A DNA stretch of 38,338 bases from Thermoleophilaceae bacterium (GTDB lineage: Bacteria; Actinomycetota; Thermoleophilia; Solirubrobacterales; Thermoleophilaceae), in assembly GCA_016929195.1 (NCBI GenBank), contig JAFGJG010000135.1, positions 1-38,338 on the forward strand, given 5' to 3'. This document shows, piece by piece, positions 32,196 through 34,465 of the stretch. Position 1 is the stretch's first letter; every line of letters starts with the position of its first letter. The notes under the pieces are model-generated. The model made no database searches. It saw only the letters and a program-made list of their open reading frames with translations, and was not told where the DNA came from. Made by a program: the position numbers and the translations under genes.

Positions 32196-33479
32196 TCAGC
32201 GCTCGGCTGCCCCCACGAGCTCACCGCCGTTCGCCTGCGCGGCCGCCTTGCCGCTGCTCCGCCTGCGCATCCTGCGCGCGAACGGCTCGACTCGCCGTGG
32301 CACCGGCGCGGCCTCGGGCACCCCATCGGGCGCCGGCGCCGTGTCGAGTCCCGGCTCGAGCGCCAGGAGCGACACGCCGCGGCCTGAGAGCCGGCCGAGG
32401 AGCTCGTCGATCTCCGACCGCGACCGCCCCAGCCGCGAAACGTGGGAGACGACGAGCGCGCTCGCCTCGTCCGAGGCGAACTGTTCCAGCGCATAGGCGA
32501 GGCCGGGCCGCTCGAGCGGCCCCTGCTCCGCCGGGTCCTCATCCCGCACCACCCCCATGAGCCTGAGGCCACGCCGCTTGCAGTGCGCCTCGATCAGCTC
32601 GATCTGGGCGAACAGCTCGGCGTGCCGCTCCGGGCCCGTCTTGGGCACGGTCACGTACCCGAGTACCGCGGCCCCGGGCTGGAGCGCCTGCAGCGCCGGC
32701 GGCAGCGGGGAGTGCACCTCCGCGTAGCGCACCCAGAACGGATGCGGACTGCCCGGCTCGATCACATAGAAACGGCTTCCCTGCGCCCGCCGCGCCGGGT
32801 CCCGGACGTCCGGGATCTCGACCGCGTAGGCCACGCCGCTGAACCGGCCGATGCCCGGGTCGCGGCTCTCGCCCGCGATCTCGAGACCCTGGCCCAGCGG
32901 CACCACGGCGGGACCCGGGCCGCGCCGGCCCGGAAGCGGCACGCCCATGCGCACGAGCAGGCCGGCCACAAGGCCGATCGCCGCGAGCGCCACCGCGAGC
33001 GCGCCTCCGTACGCGGTCCACGGGAGACCCGCGCCGCCCTCCTCGGCTGCGGGGGCCGGTGCCGCGGCCGCGGGCTCGGGCACAGGCCTCCGGGGCCGTG
33101 CGGTGGGAGCCGGCGCCGGTGGGGCCGCCGCCTCACGTCCGGCGGCGGCCGCGGCAGCCAGCGCGGCGCGAGTGCGCGGCCCGGCCAGGCCGTCCACCTT
33201 CAGGCCGCGGTCGGCCTGGAAGCGCCGCACCGCCCTGGCGGTGCGAGGCCCGTACAGGCCGTCGGGGTTCCCCGGGTTGAGCCCTGCCGCGCTGAGGTTG
33301 CGCTGCAGGCGCTCGACGGCCGGCGAGCCGTGCGCGGTGCCGAACCCGGCACCGCGCGCGAGCACGTCACGGCCGCGGTTCGTCTCGGCCCCGGACGCGG
33401 CCTGCGGCAGGGCCACGACAAGCGCCATCCCCATCAGCAGGGCCAGGCCTACGGATCGAGCTCTGGTTGTTGGGTACAT
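32196..33479 (-). CDS. Membrane protein: extracellular peptidoglycan-binding domain plus cytoplasmic catalytically dead serine-recombinase fold
   Basis: The 427-residue protein has an N-terminal signal peptide (1-30), a peptidoglycan-binding domain type 1 (about 52-109: GSPAVERLQRNLSAAGL, GLYGPRTARAVRRFQADRGL), an Ala/Pro-rich wall-spanning linker (112-150) and one transmembrane helix (154-177). A cytoplasmic part of unknown fold (183-268) follows, then a resolvase-type domain (272-382). In serine recombinases the motif is YxRVST; here it is GYVTVPK, so the catalytic Ser is Pro279 and the conserved Arg is Thr277. The second motif (DRLGR) reads SRLGR with Arg349 and Arg352 kept. So the fold is retained but not the chemistry. 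AAGGAG lies 6 nt before ATG 33479. The product would link cell wall state to a cytoplasmic protein-interaction domain. Function unknown. Confidence 0.88.
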   Translation of the reverse strand: MYPTTRARSVGLALLMGMALVVALPQAASGAETNRGRDVLARGAGFGTAHGSPAVERLQRNLSAAGLNPGNPDGLYGPRTARAVRRFQADRGLKVDGLAGPRTRAALAAAAAAGREAAAPPAPAPTARPRRPVPEPAAAAPAPAAEEGGAGLPWTAYGGALAVALAAIGLVAGLLVRMGVPLPGRRGPGPAVVPLGQGLEIAGESRDPGIGRFSGVAYAVEIPDVRDPARRAQGSRFYVIEPGSPHPFWVRYAEVHSPLPPALQALQPGAAVLGYVTVPKTGPERHAELFAQIELIEAHCKRRGLRLMGVVRDEDPAEQGPLERPGLAYALEQFASDEASALVVSHVSRLGRSRSEIDELLGRLSGRGVSLLALEPGLDTAPAPDGVPEAAPVPRRVEPFARRMRRRSSGKAAAQANGGELVGAAER

Positions 33480-33505
33480 CGACTGCTCCTTCTCGAGCGG
33501 GACTG

Positions 33506-33525
33506 ACCGGACGCACGTGTCCGGT
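33506..33525. terminator. Hairpin between two minus-strand envelope genes
   Basis: ACCGGAC (33506-33512) pairs with GTCCGGT (33519-33525) around six bases. It lies in the 68-nt gap upstream of the peptidoglycan-binding fusion gene and downstream of the repeat-protein gene; it could end transcription or attenuate it. Confidence 0.4.
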
Positions 33526-33547
33526 CCTCGGCAGACCGGAGAGCCGG

Positions 33548-34465
33548 TTAGCCGGGCCGCTCGAGCAGCGCGATGTAGGCCTGCGGGCGCAGAAGGTCCG
33601 CGGCCTCGCGGAGCCTGCGCGAACAGGGCCCGCCAAGGCCCATGAGCGCAAGCAGTGCGGCGAAGAGGGTTCCAGCGAAGAAGGCACCGCCCGGCGTGCC
33701 GCCGCCGACGGACGGGCCCCCGGGCGCCTTGGGCGCGTCGGGCGGAGCGGGCGCGGGGCCGCCGCCGCCGCGCGACGGCGCCTCATCGCCGCTCTCGGAG
33801 GGAGCGCCGCCCTCGGGTACCGGTCCGGCCGGGGCGCCGGGGAGCGCGTACCTCGGCGCCAGCGGCGGGACGGACTCGCCCATCACGTTGCGGAGCAGTT
33901 GCGGGGTGAGCGTCTTCCCGACCGGCACGGTCGGCGCGACCTCCTCGGTCGCGGGCGTCAGCGGCGTGAGCACCTGGCGCGGACTGAGCATGGGCCCGGC
34001 GGGCGTGGTCGTGGGCTCGGACGGGAGCGCCTGCGCGGCGCCGGGCGGCGGCTCGGCCGGTGTGACGGGGATGGCCGGGTCGACCACGGTCTCCCCGGGA
34101 TCGGTCGACGTGTCCGCCGGCGGGACGACCTCGTCCACTACGGGATCCACGGCGGGCGGCGTCACGGCGTCATCGACCACATCGGTCACCGGGTCCGCCA
34201 CGGGCGGATCGGTCGGCGCCGGGTCGGTGGGCGGCGTGGTGACCGGGTCGGTCACGGGGTCGACGACGTCGTCGACAACCGGCGGGGTCACCGGATCCGT
34301 CACCTCGGTGACCGTGTCCGTCACATCGCCGCCGACATTCGGCGTGGCCTCCTGGGCCGAGGCGGCGCCGGGGACGACGAGGAGGACCGCGAGCACGGCC
34401 GTGACGGCCGCCAGCCGGCGGCCCCAACCGCTACGTCCCTGTGCTGTCGAACCGTCGGCTGTCAA
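33548..34465 (-). CDS. Secreted Val/Asp/Pro/Thr repeat protein with C-terminal membrane helix
   Basis: The 305-residue protein has a signal peptide (hydrophobic 17-36, ASAQEA cleavage-like site) and a low-complexity region of tandem units such as TDPVT, DPVVDDVVDPVT and PPTDPAPTDPP (about 45-130). A Pro/Gly/Ser-rich stretch follows, then a final transmembrane segment (about 260-278) with Cys and a basic tail. This is the build of a wall-spanning stalk anchored in the membrane. No catalytic motif is visible. The TTG start at 34465 has GGAG 7 nt upstream; TAGTGT lies about 30 nt further upstream (34495-34490). The next minus-strand gene is the peptidoglycan-binding fusion, so they may act together. 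Confidence 0.72.
   Translation of the reverse strand: MTADGSTAQGRSGWGRRLAAVTAVLAVLLVVPGAASAQEATPNVGGDVTDTVTEVTDPVTPPVVDDVVDPVTDPVTTPPTDPAPTDPPVADPVTDVVDDAVTPPAVDPVVDEVVPPADTSTDPGETVVDPAIPVTPAEPPPGAAQALPSEPTTTPAGPMLSPRQVLTPLTPATEEVAPTVPVGKTLTPQLLRNVMGESVPPLAPRYALPGAPAGPVPEGGAPSESGDEAPSRGGGGPAPAPPDAPKAPGGPSVGGGTPGGAFFAGTLFAALLALMGLGGPCSRRLREAADLLRPQAYIALLERPG

What the first reader, a model, noticed from the sequence alone, without database searches (positions are those of the whole stretch)
32196..33479. Peptidoglycan-binding / transmembrane / dead serine-recombinase fusion: a possible wall-to-cytoplasm signalling protein
Seen: one open frame has signal peptide, PG-binding domain, Ala/Pro linker, one membrane helix, and a cytoplasmic resolvase-like domain. 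In it the catalytic Ser (YxRVST) is Pro279 and its Arg neighbour is Thr277, while RLGR arginines at 349 and 352 remain. Established: serine recombinases use the Ser to cut DNA and are normally free in the cytoplasm. Inference: the fold has been recruited as a dimerising or protein-binding module controlled by cell wall state. It has a strong ribosome site and a neighbouring wall-stalk gene. I know of no named system with this build.
Basis: partly seen in the sequence, partly recalled or inferred. Interest (0 to 1): 0.8.

Follow-up and report, generated by a model that had tools for sequence, protein, structure and literature searches.

The report
Wall-binding membrane protein, dead recombinase tail
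In a little-studied order of soil actinobacteria, a membrane protein that grips the cell wall outside carries, inside the cell, a DNA-cutting enzyme fold that has lost its cutting residues; it travels with a conserved 'stalk' protein and probably reports the state of the cell wall, but what it does has not been tested.

Summary
ORF 32196-33479(-) is one intact gene: signal peptide, PG_binding_1, Ala/Pro linker, one membrane helix, a small beta domain, then a serine-recombinase fold (Pfam E 2e-11; AlphaFold block means pLDDT 81-96; best PDB matches are serine recombinases). The catalytic Ser is Pro279.

The build recurs as one reading frame in eight loci: the window, a paralog in the same genome, and six other actinobacterial assemblies. 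None keeps the catalytic set; seven of eight lack the Ser.

1. The stalk gene next door is a conserved partner. It ends in a membrane helix plus an almost invariant ...LLERPG tail. Nine of 14 such stalks are followed directly by a wall-binding membrane protein. Its cytoplasmic part is a dead recombinase in five, TPR/Sel1 repeats in three, a short tail in one. In three of those last four a NarL-type response regulator follows.

2. Five of eight relatives keep the recombinase DNA-binding domain. The window copy has lost it, and its dimer helix looks broken.

Best reading: an envelope-sensing module with a pseudo-recombinase output. Signalling is inferred, not shown.

The parts
32196..33479 (-). 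whole gene: wall-binding, single-helix membrane protein with cytoplasmic pseudo-recombinase (427 aa)
   Evidence: open frame, Pfam, structure model, eight single-frame homologous loci
33486..33491 (-). ribosome-binding site AAGGAG, 6 nt before ATG
   Evidence: read directly
33387..33479 (-). signal peptide, about residues 1-31
   Evidence: hydropathy peak from residue 6; AASGA/ET cleavage-like site, inferred
33159..33326 (-). PG_binding_1 domain, residues 52-107
   Evidence: Pfam E 2e-18; block-mean pLDDT 86-96
33018..33131 (-). Ala/Pro-rich linker, residues 117-154
   Evidence: sequence; low pLDDT
32946..33011 (-). membrane helix, residues 157-178, followed by GRR
   Evidence: hydropathy, helix 158-177
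32694..32912 (-). small beta-rich domain, residues 190-262; shared with the paralog and with G002, found alone as a protein of about 95 aa in other genomes of the family
32334..32672 (-). pseudo-recombinase (Resolvase N-terminal fold), residues 270-382
   Evidence: Pfam E 2e-11, block-mean pLDDT 81-96, PDB matches
32643..32645 (-). Pro279, at the place of the catalytic Ser10 of gamma-delta resolvase
   Evidence: alignment to gamma-delta resolvase
32649..32651 (-). Thr277, at the place of Arg8
32433..32435 (-). Arg349, at the place of Arg68 (kept)
32424..32426 (-). Arg352, at the place of Arg71 (kept)
32199..32333 (-). degenerate C-terminal tail, residues 383-427: dimer helix disrupted, Recombinase/HTH domain absent
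   Evidence: alignment with five relatives that keep it; low pLDDT
33548..34465 (-). partner gene: signal peptide, Pro/Val/Thr-rich stalk, C-terminal membrane helix, tail ...PQAYIALLERPG; ends 68 bp before the fusion gene
33551..33595 (-). conserved C-terminal tail LLRPQAYIALLERPG of the stalk protein
   Evidence: invariant L.ERPG end in six aligned stalks; 16 of 399 class genomes match

Best explanation
The gene is the second half of a two-gene envelope module. Gene 1 makes a wall-spanning stalk fixed in the membrane by a C-terminal helix with an ERPG tail. Gene 2 (the finding) makes a protein that grips peptidoglycan outside and holds a catalytically dead serine recombinase inside. Shown: the parts, their order, loss of catalysis, recurrence, and pairing with the stalk. 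Inferred: wall or stalk status changes the position or clustering of gene 2's product, and its cytoplasmic part passes this on by binding protein or DNA. In relatives that keep the Recombinase DNA-binding domain it would act as a membrane-tethered DNA-binding regulator. The window copy has lost that domain and its dimer helix, so it more likely acts by protein contact, perhaps with its full-length paralog on contig C143.
For: Eight single-frame copies of the build. Fold core kept while the active site drifts: D67 lost in 8/8, S10 in 7/8, R8 in 7/8, R71 in 5/8, whereas active solo recombinases in the same alignment keep all. All eight sit in a supported clade (98/98) of non-catalytic recombinases. 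C-terminal Recombinase/HTH-like region kept in the paralog, G002, G016, G368 and G189; the G002 model shows the long dimer helix and C-terminal helices. Stalk partner directly upstream in 5 of the 8 loci, one more being cut by its contig end. In sister loci the same stalk + PG-domain + helix unit has TPR/Sel1 repeats or a short tail instead, followed by a NarL-type response regulator in three; another stalk is followed by an HD-GYP-type protein. Soluble members of the dead clade lie next to HAMP-MCP receptors in G189, G258 and G327.
Against: No ligand, DNA site or target gene is known. The window copy itself has no DNA-binding domain. The stalk is absent at G001 and AC_49. Variable cytoplasmic parts would also fit a mere anchor. 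PG_binding_1 does not prove peptidoglycan binding. Genome neighbours beyond the pair are not conserved.
Confidence: 0.5

Rival explanations
1. A structural tether. The pair ties wall, membrane and nucleoid (or a cytoplasmic scaffold) together; the pseudo-recombinase is only a sticky inner knob and carries no signal.
For: The inner part is exchangeable (dead recombinase, TPR/Sel1, short tail), and the window copy lacks both the DNA-binding part and an intact dimer helix. The stalk resembles a spacer.
Against: Regulators (NarL-type response regulator, HD-GYP type) recur next to the same stalks, and soluble dead relatives lie next to chemoreceptors.
Confidence: 0.25
2. The window copy is a decaying paralog: the full-length copy on contig C143 does the work, and this one is losing its functional C-terminus.
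For: It is 50% identical to C143 but lacks the second PG domain, the dimer helix and the HTH.
Against: The frame is open over 427 codons with GC3 0.89, a strong ribosome site, R68 and R71 both kept, and its own stalk partner. G001 and AC_49 have lost the same C-terminus independently, which suggests a usable short form.
Confidence: 0.15
3. An active serine recombinase held at the membrane, for example for DNA inversion or cassette excision linked to the envelope.
For: One member, G368, keeps Ser10, R68 and R71; R349 and R352 survive in the window copy.
Against: S10 lost in 7/8, D67 in 8/8, and G368 has R8 replaced by Ile. No relatives in the plasmid or phage collections.
Confidence: 0.03
4. 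Sequencing or assembly artefact joining two genes.
For: None found beyond the draft nature of the genome.
Against: Same fusion in eight loci, single frame, no stops inside, in separate assemblies.
Confidence: 0.01

Closest known systems
Small serine recombinases (Pfam PF00239 with PF07508; gamma-delta resolvase, TP901-1 integrase catalytic domain)
   Same: Fold, order of beta strands and helices, RPGL and RL.R stretches, and in relatives the C-terminal Recombinase DNA-binding part.
   Different: Catalytic Ser and Arg8 gone, Asp67 gone in all copies; attached to a membrane helix and a wall-binding ectodomain; the window copy has no DNA-binding domain and no intact dimer helix.
Membrane-tethered one-component regulators (ToxR/CadC type; from general knowledge)
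   Same: One protein with an outside sensor, one membrane helix and an inside part that in most relatives has a DNA-binding fold.
   Different: Reverse topology (signal peptide first, effector at the C-terminus), a recombinase-type instead of an OmpR-type DNA-binding fold, and a conserved stalk partner. No regulatory activity shown.
Single-helix wall sensors with cytoplasmic output (PASTA kinases, RsgI-type anti-sigma factors; from general knowledge)
   Same: A wall-binding or wall-spanning outer part joined by one helix to a cytoplasmic output.
   Different: The outer part is PG_binding_1, not PASTA or another sugar-binding fold; the output is a pseudo-recombinase, not a kinase or anti-sigma domain.
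Wall-anchored stalks with C-terminal sorting tails (LPXTG, GlyGly-CTERM; from general knowledge)
   Same: The partner has a signal peptide, a long low-complexity stalk, a Gly-rich stretch, a membrane helix and a short tail.
   Different: No LPxTG in the window stalk, and the conserved element is the very C-terminus, LLERPG, beyond the helix. No NCBIfam or Pfam family covers it.

Membership tests
Serine recombinase (resolvase/invertase) | Resolvase N-terminal fold | tested here: met
   Pfam PF00239 E 2e-11; block-mean pLDDT 81-96 and PDB matches to serine recombinases
Serine recombinase (resolvase/invertase) | nucleophilic Ser in YxRxS | tested here: not met
   Pro279 and Thr277 in the window; Ser lost in 7 of 8 fused proteins
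Serine recombinase (resolvase/invertase) | Asp67/Arg68/Arg71 set | tested here: not met
   Window keeps Arg68 and Arg71 but has Ser at Asp67; Asp67 lost in 8/8
Serine recombinase (resolvase/invertase) | dimer helix and C-terminal DNA-binding domain | tested here: not met
   Absent in window, G001 and AC_49; HTH region present in paralog, G002, G016, G368, G189
PG_binding_1 (PF01471) | profile match above the curated cut-off | tested here: met
   66.7 bits against a cut-off of 23
PG_binding_1 (PF01471) | actual binding to peptidoglycan | not testable with these tools
   needs a sacculus pull-down
Membrane-tethered one-component regulator | extracytoplasmic sensor, one helix, cytoplasmic effector | tested here: met
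   two hydropathy peaks with GRR after the second; topology itself is a prediction
Membrane-tethered one-component regulator | cytoplasmic DNA-binding domain | tested here: not met
   Not in the window copy; Recombinase (PF07508) above cut-off in the paralog, G016 and G368
Membrane-tethered one-component regulator | regulates transcription | not testable with these tools
   needs an experiment
LPXTG sortase substrate (stalk partner) | LPxTG before the C-terminal helix | tested here: not met
   no LPxTG anywhere in the window stalk

The most novel reading that the evidence does not exclude
A previously undescribed envelope-signalling system of Solirubrobacterales: an ERPG-tailed wall stalk paired with a peptidoglycan-gripping membrane protein whose inner end is a serine-recombinase pseudoenzyme reused as a regulator, with the output slot exchangeable between lineages (pseudo-recombinase with HTH, TPR/Sel1 plus NarL-type regulator, perhaps HD-GYP).
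Probability: 0.4. Interest if true: 0.85.

Novelty: new variant of a known kind. Interest (0 to 1): 0.62.

Why it matters
Serine recombinases are textbook DNA-cutting enzymes. Here their fold is kept while catalysis is gone, in a supported clade that includes membrane-held forms, and a second, separate clade in the same class has also lost the Ser. That makes a repeated conversion of a mobile-element enzyme into a non-catalytic part directly testable. It would also give a first handle on how Solirubrobacterales, abundant but hardly studied soil bacteria, watch their cell wall. The conserved ERPG tail is a new sequence signature whose reader is unknown.

Tried and rejected
Artefact or frameshift fusion: rejected by eight single-frame loci. 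Active recombinase: rejected for the window copy by the residue table. Mobile element, plasmid or phage cargo: no match in either collection. Defence gene: no PADLOC match. Named NCBIfam family: only partial matches far below the cut-offs. Wider spread: in 396 phylum genomes all other matches were wall domain alone or recombinase alone; the longest wall-domain matches read were amidase-like proteins. ERPG tail outside the class: one weak match, not followed up.

Full report
What is there. The open frame at 32196-33479 on the minus strand codes for 427 residues. It begins with a signal-peptide-like stretch, then a PG_binding_1 domain (52-107, Pfam E 2e-18), an Ala/Pro linker, one membrane helix followed by GRR, a small beta-rich domain (about 190-262) and a Resolvase N-terminal domain (285-382, E 2e-11). 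The ribosome site AAGGAG lies 6 nt before the ATG.

The fold. AlphaFold2 gave block-mean pLDDT of 86-96 over the PG domain and 81-96 over the recombinase part. Foldseek against the PDB put serine recombinases at the top: TP901-1 integrase, IS607 TnpA, gamma-delta resolvase. The alignment given to AlphaFold contained active viral recombinases, so this is not fully independent, but the Pfam match was made on the window sequence alone.

It recurs. A search of related genomes found a full-length paralog in the same genome (contig C143, 568 aa, two PG domains) and full-length relatives in G002, G001 and G016 (frames). The class search and later loci added G368, AC_49 and G189. That makes eight loci, each one open frame. 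Record titles place G002 and G001 in Thermoleophilaceae. In 396 genomes drawn from the phylum no further fusion was seen: the other matches were wall domain alone or recombinase alone, and those wall-domain frames that I read look like amidases. I did not read every one.

It is non-catalytic throughout. Aligned to gamma-delta resolvase, Ser10 is Pro in three copies, Asp in two, Leu in one and Thr in one; G368 keeps Ser10 but has Ile at Arg8. Asp67 is lost in all eight, Arg71 in five. Active solo recombinases from the same class keep all these residues in the same alignment. In the tree, the eight fused domains and seven solo ones form a supported clade (98/98) whose nearest relatives are active solo enzymes; the order inside the clade is not resolved, so I cannot say how many fusion events there were. 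A second, separate group of solo proteins (GYVRVAPRER, S10A) has also lost the Ser.

The C-terminus. The paralog, G002, G016, G368 and G189 keep a region after the recombinase fold that resembles the Recombinase DNA-binding domain; PF07508 passes its cut-off in the paralog, G016 and G368 and scores below it in G002. A model of the G002 cytoplasmic part shows the long dimer helix and further C-terminal helices, the latter at moderate confidence, and Foldseek extends the match to whole resolvases with DNA, at high rmsd because the domains are differently placed. The window copy, G001 and AC_49 lack this region. In the window copy the stretch that should form the dimer helix is Pro-rich and predicted poorly. 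So 'dimerising module' fits most relatives better than the window protein.

The partner. The gene directly upstream on the same strand (33548-34465) codes for a signal peptide, a Pro/Val/Thr-rich stalk, a membrane helix and a tail ending PQAYIALLERPG. Equivalent genes lie directly upstream of the fused genes in C143, G016, G368 and G189; in G002 the contig ends there, and at G001 and AC_49 none was found. The last residues L.ERPG are invariant in six aligned stalks. A search with the last 40 residues found 16 of 399 class genomes and one weak match outside the class. Of 14 such stalks I count nine followed at once by a PG-domain plus helix protein: five with the dead recombinase, three with TPR/Sel1 repeats (G378, G236, L072) and one with a short tail (G399). 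If about 1% of genes coded for PG-domain proteins, nine of 14 would have a chance of about 2e-15; the 1% is my assumption and the loci are related, so read it only as 'not chance'.

Output in sister loci. In G399, G236 and G378 the PG-domain gene is followed by a NarL-type response regulator (Response_reg plus GerE), with overlapping stop and start codons in G399 and G236. L072 has none. In G010 an HD_5 protein follows the stalk. Three solo dead recombinases lie next to HAMP-MCP receptors. These neighbours are the main reason for reading the unit as signalling; they are context, not proof.

Mechanism. Most likely (0.5): the PG-gripping protein and the stalk sense wall state or stretch, and the pseudo-recombinase passes this on by binding DNA (in copies with the C-terminal domain) or protein (in the window copy). 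Rivals: a structural tether (0.25), a decaying paralog (0.15), an active membrane recombinase (0.03), an artefact (0.01).

Novelty. Each part is known. I found no family model, paper or defence model for the combination. The library holds only open-licence papers, so absence there is weak evidence. I file it as a new variant of a known kind (single-helix wall sensors with a cytoplasmic output) and give 0.4 to the stronger reading of an undescribed signalling system.

Noticed in passing
L056-L064 (G199, G201, G182, G248, G111, G066, G081, G187, G167): A second, separate clade of solo serine recombinases with Ser10 to Ala and Arg71 to Tyr (GYVRVAPRER motif) in families f5 and f7 of the same class.
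   Followed up: partly
L219 4726-6895, L221 2564-5511, L222 4708-6964: Solo dead recombinases directly beside HAMP-MCPsignal receptor genes in three genomes (G189, G258, G327).
   Followed up: partly
L043 1462-2916(-), L045 697-2259(+): Tandem proteins with two recombinase-like halves joined by a Pro-rich linker, both without catalytic Ser; in G294 (L094) next to a long secreted repetitive protein.
   Followed up: partly
L122 2736-3482(-), L124 4473-5207(-), L097 3740-4663(-): NarL-type response regulators directly after the PG-domain membrane gene, replacing the dead-recombinase output.
   Followed up: yes
L116 3549-4460(+): HD_5 (HD-GYP type) protein directly after an ERPG-tailed stalk in G010.
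   Followed up: partly
L123 2869-3621(-), L121 3668-5662(+): ERPG-tailed stalks (one a third copy in the window's own genome) followed by secreted repetitive proteins instead of PG-domain proteins.
   Followed up: no
L227, L228 1486-1776(+), L230 1495-1785(+): The small beta domain of the window protein exists alone as a protein of about 95 aa without signal peptide; no Pfam match for L228.
   Followed up: partly
33480-33547: The gap between stalk and fusion gene holds an inverted repeat, ACCGGAC-ACGTGC-GTCCGGT, that could form a hairpin.
   Followed up: no
L033 2005-5863: Next to the G001 fusion gene lie a large serine recombinase with an intact YARVST motif and a transposase-like frame; the stalk gene is missing there.
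   Followed up: no
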